A DNA stretch of 64,000 bases from Capillimicrobium parvum (GTDB lineage Bacteria; Actinomycetota; Thermoleophilia; Solirubrobacterales; Solirubrobacteraceae). The stretch is taken from positions 4,402,001 through 4,466,000 of the forward strand of contig NZ_CP087164.1 of NCBI RefSeq assembly GCF_021172045.1. The letters run 5' to 3'. The translations under genes were made by a program, and so were the position numbers. The notes below the pieces were generated by a model. The model saw only the letters and a list, made by a program, of their open reading frames with translations, searched no databases and was not told where the DNA came from. Positions 26,426-49,212 of this stretch are shown one piece after another. Each line of letters opens with the position of its first letter. Within the stretch, counting starts at the first letter, position 1.

Positions 26426-26436
26426 AGCTACCTCTT

Positions 26437-26577
26437 TCGTGGGCCTCCGGGGTTAGCTGACGGGCTAGCGCGGAAAGAGCCTGCGCTTCTCGTGGATGAA
26501 CCACGAAATTCGCCCCACACAACATTTGGGTCCCCCGGTCCCCGGCTTTCCTGCCAGGGATTCGGCGTGATCGCGGC
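26437..26577 (-). ncRNA. ydaO/yuaA-type c-di-AMP riboswitch
   Basis: In the transcript direction the leader holds the conserved ydaO elements in the right order: a CGCCGAATCC segment near 26565, CCGGGGGACCCA at about 26527-26538, GGGGCGAAT near 26508-26516, a variable stem, and CCCGTCAGCTAACCCCGGAG ending near 26445. This family binds c-di-AMP and usually turns off wall-hydrolase, ion-transport or rpf genes when the ligand is high. The 3' edge lies about 18 bases before the GTG of the NlpC/P60 gene, with the ribosome site in between, so control of translation start or of an overlapping terminator is possible. Boundaries are approximate. Confidence 0.9.
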
Positions 26578-40604: not shown

Positions 40605-40633
40605 GGGTAGCAACGCCGGCGCAGGCGCTACCC
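40605..40633 (-). terminator. Hairpin overlapping the stop of the polysaccharide operon
   Basis: On the minus strand GGGTAGC (40633-40627) pairs with GCTACCC (40611-40605); the loop is 15 bases and itself partly self-complementary. The first arm contains the TAG stop of the GH8 gene. It would end the six-gene operon before the CNNM promoter. The stem is only seven pairs, so this is a moderate call. Confidence 0.45.
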
Positions 40634-41668
40634 GCAACGCCGAGCGAGCAAGGTCCGGGCGAGCGCGATCCAGGCCGCCCCGTAGTACGTCGGGTGCCGG
40701 TCGTCGAGGGCCTCGGCCTCGTCGAGGAGGCGGTCGCGGGCGGCGGCGTCGCCCGCGGCGTGGGCCGCCGCGGCCGCGCCCGCGAGGGCGACCGGGGTGC
40801 GGACCGCACCCACGACGCCGCGGCCGTCGAGCTCGCGGGGCAGGATCGCCGGGTCGCCCGCGCGCAGGCGCGGCCAGAGCGCCGCGGCCACCCGGCGGGC
40901 GGCGGGGTCGCAGGACTCGGCGAAGCGGACCGGCAGCCGGACGGCGTCGAAGCCGTAGCGCGGCACGCCGCCCGGATCGCCGGGCGGCGCCGCCGATCTG
41001 GCGGGCGCGCCACGCGGTCCGGCCCGCGCCCAGTCCGGCGGCAGGCGCGCGCCGCCGGCGACCAGCGCCCGCGCGGTCGCGATGCCGTGGCGGCGCACCC
41101 GCGCCCAGCGGCGGTGGTGGCCGAGGGTCACCAGCGCCCGCTCGGCCACGGGCGACGAGTAGCTGGGGTTGAGCACGCGCCCGCGCCGCGCCCACGGCCC
41201 GGCGACGAGCCGGCCGGCGGCGGTCTCGCGGCGCAGCACCGCGACCGCCATGCGCCCGGCCGCGCGGCGCAGCGCCGGGCGGCCGAACCGGCGCGCGGCC
41301 AGCTGCAGCGCCCGCGCCGCGTCGAGGTCGGCGTCGGCCGCGGGCTGGCGGTCGGCCACCCGCCCGTCGCGCCAGTGCCAGGCCAGCAGGCCGTCGCGGC
41401 GCTGCAGGTGCGCGCGCGTCCAGCGCCAGACGCGGCCGAAGCGCCGTTCGTCACCCGTCGCCGCGGCCAGCAGCAGTGCGTACGCCTGCCCCTCGCTCAC
41501 CGTGTCGCCGCCCTGGTCGCGGCGTACCACCCGGCCGTCGGGATCGACGTAGCGGTCCAGGAACCGCGCCGCCGCGCCGGGCCCCGGCCGGGGCGGCGCC
41601 GACGACGACTCGCCGCACCCGGCCGCCGTCGCGGCGAGCAGCAGTACCACCGCGATCGCCCGCCTCAC
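40628..41668 (-). CDS. GH8 family endoglucanase-like lipoprotein (BcsZ-like)
   Basis: A 346-residue exported hydrolase. The lipobox is AAGC with Cys18. The GH8 acid is Glu59 in DTVSEGQAYALLLA and the base lies in ADADLDAARAL (Asp114 or Asp116), both at the usual spacing; the helical (alpha/alpha)6 pattern continues to the end. Such enzymes trim the glucan made by a neighbouring cellulose synthase. GTG 41668 overlaps the stop of the synthase-like gene by four bases. Last gene of the operon; a hairpin overlaps its stop. Confidence 0.85.
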   Translation of the reverse strand: MRRAIAVVLLLAATAAGCGESSSAPPRPGPGAAARFLDRYVDPDGRVVRRDQGGDTVSEGQAYALLLAAATGDERRFGRVWRWTRAHLQRRDGLLAWHWRDGRVADRQPAADADLDAARALQLAARRFGRPALRRAAGRMAVAVLRRETAAGRLVAGPWARRGRVLNPSYSSPVAERALVTLGHHRRWARVRRHGIATARALVAGGARLPPDWARAGPRGAPARSAAPPGDPGGVPRYGFDAVRLPVRFAESCDPAARRVAAALWPRLRAGDPAILPRELDGRGVVGAVRTPVALAGAAAAAHAAGDAAARDRLLDEAEALDDRHPTYYGAAWIALARTLLARRCG

Positions 41669-43224
41669 GCCGCGGCCCTCCCCTCCTCGGCTCGCTCGGG
41701 GCCGGCCGCCGCGACCGGCGCCGCGGTCGGCCGCCGGGCCGGGAACAGCGCCGGCCAGATCCCGGCCGACAGCACGGTCACATGCAGCGCGGCGAACGCG
41801 ACGTTGTTGACCGTCGCGGGGTCGAGCCCGCGCGCCATCCCGACCACGCCGGTGCCCACGAGGATCGCAATGGCGGCCAGCGTCGGCGCCACGGCGCGCG
41901 GCTGCGGCCGGCGCTCGCCCTCCTTCGGCGTCACGACGAACCGGCCCCGCCGGCGCAGCAGCGTGAGGATCGTCGCCTGGACGTGGATCCACCAGCTCGC
42001 GGCCGACAGCGCGAAGCCGCCGAACGTGTACGCCCCGCGCCCGGCGACCGCCACCGCGTACAGCGCGAGGCCGAAGTACGGCGCGAAGTGCACGAGGAAC
42101 TGGTCGGCGCTCGCCGCGCCCAGCGGCTGCGCTCCGGTGAGGATGCGCAGGACCGGCATCGACATGTACACGAGCACGGTCCAGCCCGACAGGAAGTACA
42201 TCGCCGACAGCACGTACTGGGCCTTCTGGCGCCACGGCACCCGGGCGCGCAGCGCGGTCGGCAGCGCGCTCAGGCAGCCGCGCGCCCAGCGCTGCTGCTG
42301 CGAGACGTAGGACGCCATGTCCTCCGGGCCGAGCCCGCGGGCCAGCACCTCCGGCACGTACACGGTGCGCCAGCCGAGCTCGTGCAGGTGGATGGAGAGC
42401 TGGAAGTCCTCGGTCAGCGAGCCCTCCGGGAAGCCGCCGGCCGCATCGAGTGCGGCGCGCCGGAACACGACGTTCGTGCCGCAGCAGAACGTCGCCCCGA
42501 GGCCGTCCTTGCCGCGCGCGATCGCGCCGAAGAACAGCGCCTGCTGCGCCCAGGCGTGACCGGCGACGCCGCCGGACGGCGCGTTGGCGTAGTACTGCGG
42601 CGTCTGCACGAACGCGACGCGCTCGTCGGCGAGATGCCCGAGCGTCGCCTCCAGCAGGCGCTCGTCGGGCACGTGGTCGCAATCGAGCACGAGCGCGTAG
42701 GGCGCGCTCGCCAGCGCCAGCGCGTGGTTGACGTTGCCGGCCTTCGCCCCCTGACGGCGGGCGCGCGCGACGTAGCGTGCGCCGTGGCGGTCGGCCACCC
42801 GGCGCATCGCGGTCGAGGCGCCGTCGTCGAGCAGCCACACGTTGACCGCGGCGCCCCGCAGCCGCGCCGCGGCCGCGACGGTCGGCTCGACGATCGCGAC
42901 CGGCTCGTCGTAGACCGGGATGAGCACGTCGACCTCGGGCGGCGGGCCGCCGTCCGCCAGGGCGAGCGGAGCGCGCGTGCGCTGGCGCCAGCACGTCCAC
43001 CAGAAGCCGGCCGCCTGCGTGAAGTTGAACAGCTCGGCCGCGATCAGCAGCGCGAACAGCACGGGCTGGCCGACGCGCTCGGGGCGCAGCAGCCACGTGA
43101 GGTACACGAGCGCCAGCGGCAGCGCGACGAGCGCGACCAGGCGCACCGCGGTCGTGGCGCGCCGGTCGCCGCGCGCGTCCCAGTGCGGCGCCGCAAGGCG
43201 CGGATCGGTCGTCGTCGTCGTCAT
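41665..43224 (-). CDS. Cellulose-synthase-like processive GT2
   Basis: A 519-residue membrane glycosyltransferase. Two helices precede the GT-A domain: LIPVYDEP, DDG at 133-135, DCD at 181-183, QTPQ at 207-210, the catalytic TED at 271-273 and QQQRW at 309-313. About five helices follow. All hallmark residues of a processive beta-glucan synthase (BcsA-type) are present, but the protein ends at 519 residues without a PilZ domain, so no direct c-di-GMP activation is expected. The start codons (MTTTTTD) overlap the preceding gene's stop (ATGA). The product is a beta-linked polysaccharide; the sugar is not certain. Confidence 0.9.
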   Translation of the reverse strand: MTTTTTDPRLAAPHWDARGDRRATTAVRLVALVALPLALVYLTWLLRPERVGQPVLFALLIAAELFNFTQAAGFWWTCWRQRTRAPLALADGGPPPEVDVLIPVYDEPVAIVEPTVAAAARLRGAAVNVWLLDDGASTAMRRVADRHGARYVARARRQGAKAGNVNHALALASAPYALVLDCDHVPDERLLEATLGHLADERVAFVQTPQYYANAPSGGVAGHAWAQQALFFGAIARGKDGLGATFCCGTNVVFRRAALDAAGGFPEGSLTEDFQLSIHLHELGWRTVYVPEVLARGLGPEDMASYVSQQQRWARGCLSALPTALRARVPWRQKAQYVLSAMYFLSGWTVLVYMSMPVLRILTGAQPLGAASADQFLVHFAPYFGLALYAVAVAGRGAYTFGGFALSAASWWIHVQATILTLLRRRGRFVVTPKEGERRPQPRAVAPTLAAIAILVGTGVVGMARGLDPATVNNVAFAALHVTVLSAGIWPALFPARRPTAAPVAAAGPERAEEGRAAA

Positions 43225-45878
43225 CGGTACACCCACACCTTCACCTGGGGTCGCTTGAAGCGCTCCTGCAGATCGCGCGTGCGTGCGAGCTCGCGCAGGC
43301 CAGCACGGACCGCGTCGCGCTCGCCGCGCTGGTCCTGGAACGAGCCGAGCACGAAGACGCGCCCTGCCGGCGCGACCGGCCCGTCGAGCGCGCCCTGAAG
43401 CGGGCGCGCGTGCAGGTCGGGTGCGTAGTACGTGACGACGTCGCGCAGGTACTTCGGCTGGTAGAGCACGAGGTCCCCGGGCCGCGCCTCGCGCTCGATC
43501 CGCGCCAGCGCTCCCTCGAAGTCGTACACCCGCGGGTTCGCTCGGTTGACCTCCTCGTCGGCCGAGGCGACCGCAAGGCTGCCGACGAGCGCCGCCGTGA
43601 CCGCGACCGTCGCCACGCGGCCGCCGGTCCAGCCGGTCGCCGCCCGGGCGAGCAGGAGGATCGTCAGCGGCGCGAGCGCCGCGAAGTAGCGGATCTCGAA
43701 GAGGAACGGCTTGAGCTCGCCGACGAAGAACAGCGCGATCGCCGGCAGCAGCGCGCACGCGGCGACGAGCAGGGTGCGCGGCGACCGGCCCCGGCCGAGC
43801 AGCAGCAGGGCGAGCAGCAGCCCCAGCGGCCACAGCGCCGTGATCGCCGCCATCGTGCCGTTGGAGTGGTAGCCCCAGATCGCCCACACGACGTTCGTCA
43901 GGGCGATGTAGACACCAGGCTGCGTGCGGGTGGAGCTGACGTCGGAGCCGGCCTGCGACGGTTGGTCGAACCCGCGCCCCGCGGCCTCGTTGGCCTGGAA
44001 CTGGTCGTGGGCGAACGCGGCGAGCGGGGCCAGCGCGAGCGCGAGCGCGGCGACCGACAGCAGCCAGGGCCGCAGCAGCCGCCGGTCGCGCATCGCGGCC
44101 AGCGCGAACGCCGCCTGCTGCACGCCGACGACGAGCACGCCGAAGTACTGCGTCCACACGAGCGCCGCCGACGCGGCCACGTAGAGCGCCCAGTCGGCCG
44201 GCCGCCCGCGGCGCAGCGCTCGCAGCTGGCCGAGCAGCGCGAGCGTCGCGAACAGCATGAAGAGCCCGTACATGCGGGCCTCCTGCGAGTACCAGACGAG
44301 AAACGGCGCGACCGCGCCCATCGCGGCGGCGGCCAGGCCGGCGCGGCGGTCCCACACCTCGGCCGCGGTGGCGTACAGGGCCGGGACGAGCGCGGTGCCC
44401 GCGACGACCGAGGGAGCCCGCATGACGAACTCCGACGTGCCGGCGGTGTGCGCCAGCGCCCAGAGCATCAGGTGGTGCAGCGGCGGGTGGACGTCGGTCG
44501 TGCGCAGGCTGTCGAGCAGGCCGCCGAGCGACATCTGCGCCTGGGTGATCGAGGTCGCCTCGTCGAGCCAGATGCCGCGGTTGGACAGCAGCCGCACGAC
44601 GAGGGCCGCGACCGTGATGCCGGCGACGGCGAGCCCGACGCGCGCCGGGGTGCCGCCGGCGCGGCGCGCGAGGGCGCCGCGCAGCGGGAACGGCACGACG
44701 ACGCCGGGCGCGGTAGCGGCGACGAGCGTGGCCATGGCGGCGAGCGTGATCACCGCGACCCGCCCCGGGTCGGTTCCCCAGGCGACGATCGCCAGCGCCT
44801 GCGCGGCCGCGATGGCGGCCGGCACGGCGACGGCGACGACGCGGGCGCGACGCCCGTCGGCGGTGGCGATCCGGTGCGCGAGCAGCACCCGCGCGACGCC
44901 GAACAGCCCCATCGCGGCGACGTACGGCACCGCGAGCGCTCCGGTCTCCGCGTAGCGCTCGCCGAACGCCGCGCCGATGAGGTCGCGCGGCATCATCGCG
45001 ACCGCCAGCACGGCGGCGAGCCCGAGCACCGCGGCCGCGCCGACCGCGGCCCCCAGCGCCCCGCGATCACCGGCGCGGGCCCGCGGCAGCAGCACGAGCG
45101 GCACGGTGGTCGAGGCGAACGCGGCCAGCCCGCCGAGCGTGGAGAGCACGGCGAAGCGGCCCGCCTCGCCGCCGTCGAGCAGCGCGTTGGCCAAGACGAC
45201 GTCCTGGTTCTGCAGGACCGCGAGCACGAGGAACGCGGCGGTCGCCGCGCCCGCGAAGCGCAGCAGGCCGTGCTCCCGGGACGAGATCCCGCCGGCCGCT
45301 GCGAACCGTGGACGGGTCGCGGCGAGCGCCAGCCAGCCGCCCGCGACGACCGCCGCCGCGCCTCCGGCGACCCCGAACGCCGCGACGAGGGGCAGGCCAA
45401 GCGCCAGGCGGGCGACCGGCTCGGCGACCAGGCTGAGCGCCGCGCGGCCGTGCTCGCGCTCGCCGTAGAGGCGCCCGCGCTCCAGCGCGAGCCACGGGGC
45501 CAGCGGCACGCCGGCGGCGAGCACGACCAGCAGCCCGGCCGGCACGCCGAGCACGGCGCCCAGCGGCACGGCGGCCACGACGAGCGCGAGCCCGGCGGCG
45601 ACGCCGAGGCCCAGCGCGCCGCGCCGGGCGCCCGGCACGGCCGCCGGCGTGAGCGCCGCGCCCGCGCTCAGGCTCGACGCGGGCACGTGGACGAGGAGGT
45701 ACAGCGCGAGGAACGCGACGAGGTCGGCGAACGCGCCGGGGGCCAGCAGATGGGCCGCGACGAGCGAGAAGGCGAGGTTGCCGACGCCGGAGGCGACCTG
45801 CGCCCCGGCGACGAACGCCTGCTCGCGCACGACGCCCCCGCGGCGCAGGGGCCGGGTCAGGAGTGCCGGCGTGCTCAC
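43221..45878 (-). CDS. Flippase-glycosyltransferase fusion (MATE/Wzx-like plus GT39-like)
   Basis: An 885-residue protein in one open frame. Residues 1-420 look like an oligosaccharide flippase of the MOP superfamily: about 12-14 helices, starting LLTRPLRRGGVVREQAFVAG. Residues 430-885 look like a GT39/PMT-type enzyme: the acidic NRGIWLDEATSITQAQMS loop after its first helix, a VHPPLHHLML motif, about nine helices and a soluble tail. These are normally two genes. Codon use and frame are continuous, with no frameshift. GTG 45878 overlaps the pyruvyl-transferase stop, and its own stop overlaps the synthase-like gene. It probably moves a lipid-linked unit across the membrane and glycosylates it. 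Confidence 0.8.
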   Translation of the reverse strand: MSTPALLTRPLRRGGVVREQAFVAGAQVASGVGNLAFSLVAAHLLAPGAFADLVAFLALYLLVHVPASSLSAGAALTPAAVPGARRGALGLGVAAGLALVVAAVPLGAVLGVPAGLLVVLAAGVPLAPWLALERGRLYGEREHGRAALSLVAEPVARLALGLPLVAAFGVAGGAAAVVAGGWLALAATRPRFAAAGGISSREHGLLRFAGAATAAFLVLAVLQNQDVVLANALLDGGEAGRFAVLSTLGGLAAFASTTVPLVLLPRARAGDRGALGAAVGAAAVLGLAAVLAVAMMPRDLIGAAFGERYAETGALAVPYVAAMGLFGVARVLLAHRIATADGRRARVVAVAVPAAIAAAQALAIVAWGTDPGRVAVITLAAMATLVAATAPGVVVPFPLRGALARRAGGTPARVGLAVAGITVAALVVRLLSNRGIWLDEATSITQAQMSLGGLLDSLRTTDVHPPLHHLMLWALAHTAGTSEFVMRAPSVVAGTALVPALYATAAEVWDRRAGLAAAAMGAVAPFLVWYSQEARMYGLFMLFATLALLGQLRALRRGRPADWALYVAASAALVWTQYFGVLVVGVQQAAFALAAMRDRRLLRPWLLSVAALALALAPLAAFAHDQFQANEAAGRGFDQPSQAGSDVSSTRTQPGVYIALTNVVWAIWGYHSNGTMAAITALWPLGLLLALLLLGRGRSPRTLLVAACALLPAIALFFVGELKPFLFEIRYFAALAPLTILLLARAATGWTGGRVATVAVTAALVGSLAVASADEEVNRANPRVYDFEGALARIEREARPGDLVLYQPKYLRDVVTYYAPDLHARPLQGALDGPVAPAGRVFVLGSFQDQRGERDAVRAGLRELARTRDLQERFKRPQVKVWVYR

Positions 45879-47014
45879 TCGGCCACCGCCCACTCGGCCG
45901 GCTTGAGCGGCAGGCTCCCCATGGCGTCCGCCTCGTCGCCGCGCCCGCCGTCGAGGACGAGCCGCAGGAGCCGGAAGCCCTCCTCGGCGGCCGCGACCTC
46001 GGCGCGCACGGCGGCCGCGCTCGGCGCCACGGCCGCCTCGGCGGCGGCCACGAGCCGGGCGCCGAGCTGCGCCGGGTCGGTCCCCGGCGCGAGCACCGGC
46101 TGCCCGAGGCGGCGCGCGGCGCCGGCGAGCTTCGGCTCGTGCGCGTAGGCGACCGACGGCACGCCCGCCCCGGCGGCGGTCAGCATCGCGTGGAAGCGCA
46201 GCGCCACGACGAGCCGCGCGTCCGCGAACGACCCGCGCGCCTCGGCGAGGTCGGCGGGCGGCACGCCGATCCGCGCCACGCCGCCGAGGCGCGCGTCGAT
46301 CTCGCGGGCCAGGTCGAGGTCGTCGCGCCGGCCGATCCGGCCGATCTGCCAGGGCTGCAGGATCACGTCGAAGCCGTGGGCGAGCACGGGCACGAGGGCG
46401 ACGGCGAGATCGTCGGCCAGGCCGGCGCCGCCGGCGTCGTGCGACAGCGCCACGACGACGGTGCCCCGGCGCATGCGCTCGGTGTCCGACGCGGGTGGGG
46501 CGCCCTCGACGTCGAGGATCGTCCAGGCAGGGTCGGCGCCGATGCGGAACGGCGCGGGCGCGCCCGCCTCGGCCAGCACGTCCGCGGACTCCTCGTCGCG
46601 CAGGACCAGCAGGTCGGCCTGATGGACGAGCCGGCGCGCGAGCAGCCGGGCGCGGCGGCCCGGCAGCGGTGCCGCACCGACCCCGACGAGCGCCAGCGGC
46701 TTGCCGAGCGCCCGGGTGCCGAGCCCCATGGCGAGCGCCCGGCCGAGCAGGTCGAGCGGTCCGCGGCCGCTCGCGCCGCGCAGGGTCTTGAACACGGTGC
46801 CGCCGGCGAACACCACCGCGTCGGCGGAGCGCACCTGGCGCATCACCGCCGGCGGGTCGGAGGGCGCGACGCGCTCGCATCCCGGCAGGACCGGGCCGGG
46901 CCGGCTGGTGGCGATCAGCTCGCGGCCGGGCAGCGCGCGGCGAAACGCCTCGAGCAGGGCGTCGTCGCCAGGATTGCGCTGTCCGAACGCGCCGGCGAGG
47001 ACGACTCGGCTCAC
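45875..47014 (-). CDS. Polysaccharide pyruvyl transferase family protein (CsaB-like)
   Basis: A 379-residue GT-B-like protein. The start RVVLAGAFGQRNPGDDALLEAF carries the NxGDxA/LL motif of the family; FAGGTVFKTLRG, GVGAAPLP and RDEESADVLAEAG follow, and VALRFHAMLTAAGAGVPSV near the C-terminus is the donor-site H-x-H-like signature. It would add pyruvate from phosphoenolpyruvate to a sugar, giving an acidic ketal on the surface polymer, as for S-layer anchoring. GTG overlaps with the preceding gene (GTGA). Confidence 0.85.
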   Translation of the reverse strand: MSRVVLAGAFGQRNPGDDALLEAFRRALPGRELIATSRPGPVLPGCERVAPSDPPAVMRQVRSADAVVFAGGTVFKTLRGASGRGPLDLLGRALAMGLGTRALGKPLALVGVGAAPLPGRRARLLARRLVHQADLLVLRDEESADVLAEAGAPAPFRIGADPAWTILDVEGAPPASDTERMRRGTVVVALSHDAGGAGLADDLAVALVPVLAHGFDVILQPWQIGRIGRRDDLDLAREIDARLGGVARIGVPPADLAEARGSFADARLVVALRFHAMLTAAGAGVPSVAYAHEPKLAGAARRLGQPVLAPGTDPAQLGARLVAAAEAAVAPSAAAVRAEVAAAEEGFRLLRLVLDGGRGDEADAMGSLPLKPAEWAVAE

Positions 47015-48255
47015 TCGACCACCCCCGGGACGTCACGACGGCCCGGTGCGTCAGCCAGGGTGGTGCCGGCCGCCCCCGGAACGTCGCGAGCGTCAGCCCG
47101 GGTGGTGCCCGCCGCCGCGTACACCTCGAGGTGGCGACGCGCGACCGCGGGCCAGCCCCGGTCGCCCGCCATCGCCGCGGCCGCGGCGCCCAGCGCGCCG
47201 AGACGGGACCGGTCGGCCGCCAGGCCGCGCAGCACCGCCGCGAGCGCCGGGGCCTCGCGCGGGGCGACGAGCGGCGCCGGCGCACCGGCGCACGTCGCCA
47301 GCTCGGGCGACATCAGCACGGGCGTTCCGTGGGCGAGCGCAAGCGCGAGCGCGCCGCTGCTCGACACCGGCCGCGGGTAGGCGAAGAGCGCGACGTCCGC
47401 GGCGGCGAACCACGCCGCCACGTCGCCGTCGGGGACGTGGCCGGTGAAGCGGGCGTGGTCGCCGTGCGCGCCGCGCAGGACCTCCGCGTAGGCGTCGCCG
47501 ACGCGCGGGTGCGTCCCGCCCGCGACCACGACCTCGACCCCGCTCCCCGCCAGCCGCCCCGCCTCCAGCGCCGGCTCGAGGCCCTTGTACGGCGCGACGA
47601 AGCCGAAGCACAGGACGGTCAGGCGGTCGTCGCGGACGCCGAGCCGGGACCGCGCCGCCGCTCGCTCGGCGGCCGCGGCCGACTCGATGCCGTGCGGCAC
47701 GACGGTCGCGCCCGGGACGGCCTCGGCGAATGCTGGCTCGTGGACGACGACGGCATCGGCGTGGCGGCGGACGCTCTCGCGGACCACGGCCAGCCCCGCG
47801 CGCGCGACGGCGGCGGGCACGCGCACGCGATGCAGGCGGGTGAACTGCGCGTCGACGGCGCCCGCCGCGACGACGTGGTGCATCGTCACGACCGACGACG
47901 GCCGCCCTCGGCGCAGGCGGCGCAGCGCCGCCACGAGCGCTGGCACCGCGGCCGGCCCGCCGTACAGGAAGGTCTCGTGCTGCAGGTGCACGGTGGGCGC
48001 GCCCGTCGCGCACGCGGCCCGGGCGGCGCGGACCAGCCAGGGCGGCCCGGCCTCGAACCGGCGCAGGACCCGCACCCGGCCGTCGCGGTGCTCGGCCGGC
48101 AGGCCCGGCTCGACGGGCGCGACGACGGTCACGCCGGCGCCAGCGCCGGTCAGCGCCTCGGCGAGGTTCGCGGTGTAGGAGGCCACGCCGCTCGAGCCGC
48201 CGTGGCGGATCCCGGGACGTGGGTAGGGGGAGATGAGCGCCACGTCAGGCCGCAC
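47011..48255 (-). CDS. GT4 family glycosyltransferase
   Basis: A 414-residue GT-B enzyme. The N-terminal glycine-rich loop is RHGGSSGVASYTANLAEAL, a mid-protein VLCFGFVAPYKGLEPALEA marks the donor domain, and the E-x7-E-like region is SSGALALALAHGTPVLMS. It transfers a sugar from a nucleotide donor with retention. Its GTG overlaps the end of the GT2 gene by 11 bases. The third-from-start reactions of the polymer unit are probably its task; specificity is unknown. Confidence 0.88.
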   Translation of the reverse strand: MRPDVALISPYPRPGIRHGGSSGVASYTANLAEALTGAGAGVTVVAPVEPGLPAEHRDGRVRVLRRFEAGPPWLVRAARAACATGAPTVHLQHETFLYGGPAAVPALVAALRRLRRGRPSSVVTMHHVVAAGAVDAQFTRLHRVRVPAAVARAGLAVVRESVRRHADAVVVHEPAFAEAVPGATVVPHGIESAAAAERAAARSRLGVRDDRLTVLCFGFVAPYKGLEPALEAGRLAGSGVEVVVAGGTHPRVGDAYAEVLRGAHGDHARFTGHVPDGDVAAWFAAADVALFAYPRPVSSSGALALALAHGTPVLMSPELATCAGAPAPLVAPREAPALAAVLRGLAADRSRLGALGAAAAAMAGDRGWPAVARRHLEVYAAAGTTRADARDVPGAAGTTLADAPGRRDVPGVVE

Positions 48256-48970
48256 CGGCCACCTCCCGCACCCGGCGGCGCAGCGACGCGGCCCACAGCC
48301 GCAGCAGCGACGCCCCCATCCTCCGCGTGTCCGCGACGGGGTCGACGCGCGAGCCCTCCTGGTCGACCCACACCGTCGGCACCTCGACGACGCGGTGGCC
48401 GAGATCGCGGGCGGTGACGAGCAGGTCGACGTCGAAGAGCAGGTCCTGCGACGTGGTGTGCGCGACGATGTCGCGGGCCACGTCGCCGCGCAGGACCTTC
48501 GCCCCGCACTGCGTGTCGCGGTAGGGCAGGCCGAGCAGCCGGCGCACGCCGAACGCGAACCCGGCGCTGGTCAGCCGGCGCGACAGCGGCCGCGACGCGG
48601 GCAGGACGGACGCCGGATGGTGGCGCGAGGCGATCGCCCCGTCGGCGCGGCCGGCCACGTCGGCGAGCCGGAGCAGCTCCGCCGGCGGTGTCGCGCCGTC
48701 GGCGTCGACGAACCCGACGAGGTCGGCGTCGCTGCGGCGGAACGTCTCCGCGATCACGCCGCCCTTGCCGAGCTTCGGGTACTCGTGCAGCTCGATGCGC
48801 CGATCGGCGCGCTGGTGGCCGCGGACGATCTCGGCGGTCCCGTCGGTGCAGTGGTCCAGCGCGACGTGGAACCGCGTGCCCGGATGCGGGCAGCCGGCGC
48901 GGTAGGCCGTGAGCATGCGGTCGATCCGATGCTCTTCGTTGTGGGCGGGAATGACGATGTCGAGACGCAC
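48245..48970 (-). CDS. GT2 glycosyltransferase (DPG/DPM-like), first gene of the polysaccharide operon
   Basis: A 241-residue GT-A enzyme: LDIVIPAHNEEHRIDRML at the start, YPKLGKGGVIAETFRRS, and the DxD motif GFVDADGATPP. GTG 48970 is chosen because GGAGG lies five to six bases upstream; a longer frame (to 49018) lacks a site. The type suggests a polyprenyl-phosphate sugar transferase, feeding the GT39-like half of the fusion protein. First gene of six that overlap by 4-11 bases, and preceded by a CRP-type palindrome. Confidence 0.88.
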   Translation of the reverse strand: MRLDIVIPAHNEEHRIDRMLTAYRAGCPHPGTRFHVALDHCTDGTAEIVRGHQRADRRIELHEYPKLGKGGVIAETFRRSDADLVGFVDADGATPPAELLRLADVAGRADGAIASRHHPASVLPASRPLSRRLTSAGFAFGVRRLLGLPYRDTQCGAKVLRGDVARDIVAHTTSQDLLFDVDLLVTARDLGHRVVEVPTVWVDQEGSRVDPVADTRRMGASLLRLWAASLRRRVREVAGAA

Positions 48971-49151
48971 GGGGTCCTCCGCGGCAGGCGTTGCGGTTTG
49001 CGGGTCTCCTGCGACCACGGCGCTGTCGCCCGCCGGCCCACAGAGGGCACACCGGTGGCGGGTTGCGGTTCAGCGCCGCCCGGGCGCGGCCATACGGCCG
49101 GCACGCGGCGGGGTCATCCACCTAAGCACAGCGCATGGCCGAACGTCTCGC

Positions 49152-49173
49152 TCGTGTGACCGGGATCACACGA
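49152..49173. promoter_or_regulatory. CRP/FNR-family palindrome TGTGA-N6-TCACA
   Basis: TCGTGTGA at 49152-49159 and TCACACGA at 49166-49173 are exact inverses with a six-base spacer; the core TGTGA-N6-TCACA is the classic CRP/GlxR consensus. It is located between the stop of the pterin dehydratase gene (49213) and the start of the polysaccharide operon (48970), about 180 bases upstream of the first GTG. This places it in the operon's promoter region. Activation or repression cannot be decided without the transcription start. Confidence 0.7.
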
Positions 49174-49212
49174 CGGTTCGACGGCGGCTCGCCGGGCGAC
49201 GAGCCGCCGCGA

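What the first reader, a model, noticed from the sequence alone, without database searches (positions are those of the whole stretch)
40628..49173. CRP-type palindrome ahead of a six-gene polysaccharide operon
TGTGA-N6-TCACA with 8-base perfect arms lies in the only promoter-sized gap before six genes that all overlap by 4-11 bases. The whole pathway would then answer to a CRP/GlxR-type regulator, that is, to cAMP or carbon supply. Chance of a perfect 16-base palindrome at this place is low.
Basis: partly seen in the sequence, partly recalled or inferred. Interest (0 to 1): 0.64.

Follow-up and report, generated by a model that had tools for sequence, protein, structure and literature searches.

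The report
Conserved CRP-type switch before sugar-polymer operon
The DNA palindrome in front of six polysaccharide genes is a real, evolutionarily conserved binding site for a CRP-type (cyclic-nucleotide-responsive) regulator, so these soil bacteria probably tie production of a cellulose-like coat to a second messenger; it is a new instance of a well-known kind of switch.

Summary
Observation confirmed: TCGTGTGA-N6-TCACACGA lies at 49152-49173, in the 242-bp gap before six overlapping minus-strand genes (GT2, GT4, pyruvyl transferase, membrane protein with GT39 domain, CesA-like, GH8). Its core is the only exact TGTGA-N6-TCACA in the 5.95-Mb genome, about what chance gives, so the palindrome alone proved little. 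Comparison settles it. Nine of 23 orthologous operons (nine of 12 in the Thermoleophilia group) carry a site with at most one mismatch 156-253 bp before the first gene, against 0.08 expected; in the leader alignment GTG-N8-CAC is the only contiguous conserved block. In a same-genus relative the upstream gene differs but the site stays 192 bp from the operon. Across 61 relatives the motif occurs 139 times against 5 for the reversed control. A conserved CRP orthologue with E. coli-type DNA-reading residues and a cyclic-nucleotide pocket is present in every site-bearing genome examined, and is the only clear CRP-family protein in one. Adenylate-cyclase domains are present. cAMP as ligand, activation versus repression, and the promoter are inferred, not shown. 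Unexpectedly, one relative lacks the site and has a c-di-AMP riboswitch leader instead. New member of a known kind.

The parts
49152..49173 (.). CRP-type operator TCGTGTGA-N6-TCACACGA (core TGTGA-N6-TCACA at 49155-49170), centre 192 bp before the start codon of the first gene
   Evidence: conserved in orthologous operons
48971..49212 (-). upstream gap and leader region of the operon; promoter not located
   Evidence: no sigma-70 consensus, no Rfam match
48245..48970 (-). gene 1, GT2 glycosyltransferase, 241 aa, GTG start after a GGAGG ribosome site
   Evidence: Pfam PF00535 4e-15; start shared with orthologues
47011..48255 (-). gene 2, GT4-type glycosyltransferase, 414 aa
   Evidence: Pfam PF13692
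45875..47014 (-). gene 3, polysaccharide pyruvyl transferase, 379 aa
   Evidence: Pfam PF04230 4e-23; CsaB model 113 of 213 bits
43221..45878 (-). gene 4, 885-aa protein with a C-terminal GT39-type (PMT_2) domain; N-terminal half looks like a flippase by eye only
   Evidence: Pfam PF13231; no family hit for the N-terminal half
41665..43224 (-). gene 5, CesA/BcsA-like processive glycosyltransferase, 519 aa
   Evidence: Pfam PF13632; TIGR03030 245 of 699 bits
40628..41668 (-). gene 6, GH8 (BcsZ-like) hydrolase, 346 aa
   Evidence: Pfam PF01270; NF008305 90 of 299 bits
49183..49208 (-). separate 11-bp GC-rich hairpin just after the dehydratase gene, without a T run; candidate end of that transcript
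   Evidence: not called as a terminator

Best explanation
The palindrome is an operator for the order's conserved CRP orthologue (here the protein encoded around G000:C1:5678305-5678877, outside the window). When the regulator binds its second messenger, most likely cAMP, its dimer reads the two TGTGA half-sites through an R-E-x3-R recognition helix and so controls one promoter downstream of the site, from which all six overlapping polysaccharide genes are transcribed. Shown here: the site, its conservation, the gene overlaps, the regulator with its predicted DNA- and nucleotide-contact residues, and cyclase domains. Inferred: that this protein is the binder, that cAMP is the ligand, that the genes form one transcript, and that the effect is activation (only weakly preferred, because the sites lie well upstream of the start codon).
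For: Exact site in the only gap. Nine orthologous operons with a site of at most one mismatch, 0.08 expected, and no other such site in the loci of named genomes. Only GTG and CAC, eight bases apart, form contiguous invariant blocks in the leader alignment. In G001 the site is identical and again 192 bp upstream, although a different gene lies directly upstream and the dehydratase gene is about 2.7 kb away. Motif 139 against 5 in 61 relatives. CRP orthologue with R180/E181/R185 and GEL...RSAT pocket, the only strong CRP-type protein in G020. Class III cyclase domains in all seven operon-bearing genomes searched.
Against: Only one perfect site in the own genome, equal to the control. G017 and G025 have the operon but no site, as do all 11 loci outside the group. 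Adenine-contact residues T127/S128 of E. coli CRP are A/N in most orthologues. No recognisable promoter and no common spacing to a -10-like box. Nothing was measured.
Confidence: 0.8

Rival explanations
1. The site is a genuine CRP/FNR-family operator, but the binder is another family member (the proteins at L002, L003 or L008), or the ligand is not cAMP (for example c-di-GMP, as for Xanthomonas Clp, or a redox or other signal).
For: Four CRP-family proteins in the genome; L003 and L008 also have R-E-x3-K/R helices. A CRP relative that binds c-di-GMP and regulates xanthan genes is known (PMC5449483).
Against: In G020, which has the site, the L060 orthologue is the only strong CRP-type protein. 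L002 has R-A-x3-R, lacking the glutamate. The pocket of L060 keeps the usual cyclic-nucleotide cassette.
Confidence: 0.15
2. The palindrome is an RNA hairpin, a terminator of the dehydratase gene or an attenuator, not a protein-binding site.
For: 8-bp arms and a 6-base loop fold well as RNA (z -2.06); the site lies 40 bp after the dehydratase stop.
Against: A separate GC hairpin already follows that gene. In G001 the neighbouring gene differs but the site persists. Relatives keep the GTG-N8-CAC contacts, not the outer stem pairs. No T run.
Confidence: 0.03
3. Chance palindrome.
For: One perfect core in 5.95 Mb equals the reversed control.
Against: Conservation at the same place in nine loci against 0.08 expected, and order-wide enrichment.
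Confidence: 0.02

Closest known systems
E. coli CRP operator (TGTGA-N6-TCACA) and cAMP-CRP
   Same: Exact consensus core and 22-bp length; regulator keeps R180, E181, R185 and the phosphate-binding cassette.
   Different: Regulator is only about 28% identical to E. coli CRP; few perfect sites per genome (0-8); adenine contacts differ; ligand unproven.
Actinobacterial CRP/GlxR (M. tuberculosis CRP, C. glutamicum GlxR)
   Same: Among the nearest solved full-length relatives by sequence; GlxR is reported to use a similar TGTGA-N6-TCACA consensus (PMC5449483).
   Different: Recognition helix ends in R, as in E. coli, rather than K; a different class; size of the regulon unknown.
Xanthomonas Clp and the gum (xanthan) operon
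   Same: A CRP-family protein controlling an exopolysaccharide operon (PMC5449483).
   Different: Clp binds c-di-GMP and uses non-consensus sites at gum; here the site is consensus and the ligand probably cAMP.
bcs cellulose synthase operon
   Same: A CesA/BcsA-like synthase next to a GH8 BcsZ-like hydrolase.
   Different: Both score below the NCBIfam cut-offs; additional GT2, GT4, pyruvyl transferase and GT39/membrane protein; no other bcs component among the six genes.

Membership tests
CRP/GlxR-type operator | TGTGA-N6-TCACA core | tested here: met
   exact match
CRP/GlxR-type operator | conserved upstream of orthologous genes | tested here: met
   nine loci against 0.08 expected; core columns invariant
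CRP/GlxR-type operator | CRP-family regulator with R-E-x3-R/K recognition helix in the genome | tested here: met
CRP/GlxR-type operator | motif over-represented in genomes that encode the regulator | tested here: met
   139 against 5 in 61 genomes; own genome alone 1 against 1 exact, 17 against 5 with one mismatch
CRP/GlxR-type operator | binding by the regulator | not testable with these tools
   needs gel shift or footprint
cAMP-dependent CRP | cyclic-nucleotide pocket residues | tested here: inconclusive
   GEL...RSAT kept; T127/S128 are A/N in most orthologues
cAMP-dependent CRP | adenylate cyclase in the genome | tested here: met
   PF00211 domains in all seven genomes searched, six in G000; product specificity (cAMP or cGMP) not tested
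cAMP-dependent CRP | over the curated cut-off of the CRP equivalog model | tested here: not met
   NF008732 94 of 266 bits; that model is for the E. coli type
bcs cellulose synthase operon | CesA/BcsA and BcsZ over curated cut-offs | tested here: not met
   245 of 699 bits (CesA) and 90 of 299 bits (BcsZ)

The most novel reading that the evidence does not exclude
One conserved six-gene exopolysaccharide operon has been rewired among second messengers inside one bacterial family: most Thermoleophilia lineages put it under a CRP-type (probably cAMP) operator, while at least one sister lineage has lost that site and carries a c-di-AMP riboswitch in the leader instead.
Probability: 0.5. Interest if true: 0.5.

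Novelty: new member of a known kind. Interest (0 to 1): 0.42.

Why it matters
It gives a comparatively supported CRP operator and a candidate CRP regulator for Thermoleophilia; searches of the open-access library found no study of CRP or exopolysaccharide control in this class. It predicts that a cellulose-like, possibly pyruvylated surface polymer of common soil bacteria responds to a cyclic nucleotide. The c-di-AMP riboswitch on the orthologous operon of a relative makes a switch of messenger on one conserved operon directly testable.

Tried and rejected
Single-genome statistics: the perfect motif is not above chance in the own genome and would have left the question open. Terminator or hairpin reading: rejected because a separate hairpin follows the dehydratase gene and only the protein-contact core is conserved. 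Riboswitch in the window's leader: none at E up to 1, although one is found in G025. Locating the promoter by consensus: none found, and -10-like hexamers show no common spacing, so activation versus repression could not be decided. Autoregulation of the CRP gene: a one-mismatch site near the gene start only in G020, not general. The rough in-house gene caller put 18 of 26 perfect sites of relatives outside genes but mis-called the window's own site as inside a gene, so it is not used as evidence. Papers on CRP in this class: none relevant. In some searches the typed CRP query differs from the true sequence in its first residues (MTTTT for MGPTT), which should not affect the matches. A first attempt to submit this report was malformed.

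Full report
What was checked. The palindrome is present exactly as described: TCGTGTGA-N6-TCACACGA at 49152-49173, core TGTGACCGGGATCACA at 49155-49170 on the plus strand, reading TGTGATCCCGGTCACA toward the operon. The 'perfect 16-base palindrome' is 2 x 8 paired bases around a 6-base spacer that is not itself palindromic. Downstream on the minus strand are six genes with overlaps of 11, 4, 4, 4 and 4 bases. The only gap is 242 bp, between the pterin-4a-carbinolamine dehydratase stop (49213) and the GTG of the first gene (48970), which has a GGAGG ribosome site. Pfam: GT2, GT4-type, polysaccharide pyruvyl transferase, an 885-aa protein with a GT39-type domain, a CesA-like synthase and a GH8 hydrolase. 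The CesA- and BcsZ-like proteins score far below the cut-offs for true cellulose synthase complexes, so 'cellulose-like' is as far as I go.

Chance. In the whole 5.95-Mb genome the exact core occurs once, and so does the control pattern read backwards; TGTG-N8-CACA gives 10 against 10. With one mismatch the counts are 17 against 5. Its position in the one promoter-sized gap is what makes it suggestive.

Comparison. Close orthologues of the first gene were found in six related genomes and in 21 loci of named genomes, giving 23 distinct loci with the window's own after removing duplicates. Gene order is the same across many of these, including loci labelled Frankiaceae, Nitriliruptorales and one Acidobacteria bin; some contigs end before the operon does, and in the Acidimicrobiales locus the GH8 gene lies at the other end. 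I scanned 450 bp upstream of each first gene. Nine loci carry TGTGA-N6-TCACA with at most one mismatch, 156-253 bp before the start codon; dinucleotide shuffles predict 0.08 such loci, and no other site of this quality occurs in the loci fetched from named genomes. The nine are nearly all labelled as Thermoleophilia (Solirubrobacter, Conexibacter, a Thermoleophilaceae bin and others), where nine of 12 loci have the site; one, L093, is labelled Actinomycetospora and its taxonomy was not verified. None of the 11 loci from other groups has it. In the alignment of the nine leaders the only contiguous invariant blocks are GTG and CAC, eight bases apart, which lie within the half-sites that CRP reads. 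In the same-genus genome G001 the site is identical and again 192 bp from the start, although a different gene lies directly upstream and the dehydratase gene is about 2.7 kb away. The site therefore belongs to the operon, not to the upstream gene. The loci are related by descent, so the shuffle expectation is a guide and not a strict probability.

The regulator. Across 61 related genomes the exact motif occurs 139 times against 5 reversed controls, so the order appears to use this operator. The window's genome has four proteins with both a cyclic-nucleotide-binding domain and a strong Crp-type HTH. One of them (L060, at G000:C1:5678305-5678877) has orthologues, mostly about 70-80% identical and 56-59% in G052, in the relatives examined. 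In G020, a 98% complete genome whose operon has the site, it is the only strong CRP-family hit. Its recognition helix SRESASR keeps R180, E181 and R185 of E. coli CRP, and its nucleotide pocket keeps GEL...RSAT; the adenine contacts T127/S128 are A/N in most orthologues (residue roles from general knowledge). By sequence its nearest full-length solved relatives include, as I recall these entries, M. tuberculosis CRP and corynebacterial GlxR. Class III cyclase domains occur in all seven operon-bearing genomes searched, only one of them in G020. A cAMP-CRP circuit is therefore complete on paper.

What is not shown. Binding, ligand, start site, direction of control and co-transcription are inferences. 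No sigma-70 consensus was found, and -10-like hexamers show no shared distance to the site. Two operons of the same family lack the site (G017, G025). G017 is only 64% complete, and the relative of this CRP found there has a degenerate recognition helix (PKDAATR), which fits loss of the site but proves nothing.

Unexpected. The G025 operon leader, which lacks the CRP site, holds a c-di-AMP riboswitch (RF00379, 56.2 bits against a cut-off of 38). No such element is found in the window's leader. G025 does encode an orthologue of the CRP (L059). If G025 is assembled correctly, the same operon has exchanged one nucleotide messenger for another within a family.

Rivals. A hairpin or terminator reading is unlikely: a separate GC hairpin follows the dehydratase gene at 49183-49208, and relatives keep the protein-contact bases, not the outer stem. 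Another CRP-family protein, or a ligand other than cAMP, remains possible; Xanthomonas Clp is the precedent for a CRP relative that binds c-di-GMP and controls xanthan genes (PMC5449483).

Verdict. It is a new instance of a well-known regulatory type, with moderate interest because CRP targets have apparently not been described in this class and because of the apparent switch to a c-di-AMP riboswitch.

Noticed in passing
L028 1318-1469 (G025, leader of the orthologous operon): c-di-AMP riboswitch (RF00379) directly before the first gene of the same operon, in a relative that lacks the CRP-type site.
   Followed up: partly
window 26427-26577, minus strand: c-di-AMP riboswitch (75 bits) ending two bases before a 199-aa ORF (26425-25826) with a DCSGTVSY motif that looks like a secreted NlpC/P60-type peptidase.
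   Followed up: partly
L019/L020, G000:C1:3821685-3821726: Two one-mismatch CRP-like palindromes 26 bp apart (GGTGACCGAAGTCACA and TGTGACCTGGGTCACC), apparently between divergent genes; possible second target of a CRP-family protein.
   Followed up: no
L016 around 1497-1521, G000:C1:2813983-2813998: CCAAGTGTG-N8-CACACTTGG, 9-base perfect arms with the CRP core spacing, in a short gap between two genes on one strand; operator or hairpin not decided.
   Followed up: no
L025 around 1301-1345 (G001): The right arm of the conserved palindrome runs into a long hairpin, CACGAGGGCGACC-TTCG-GGTCGCCCTCGTG, absent from the window's own leader.
   Followed up: no
G007:C10:74805-75828: Four identical copies of TGTGACAAAGATCACA within about 1 kb in a relative; possibly a repeat array rather than operators.
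   Followed up: no
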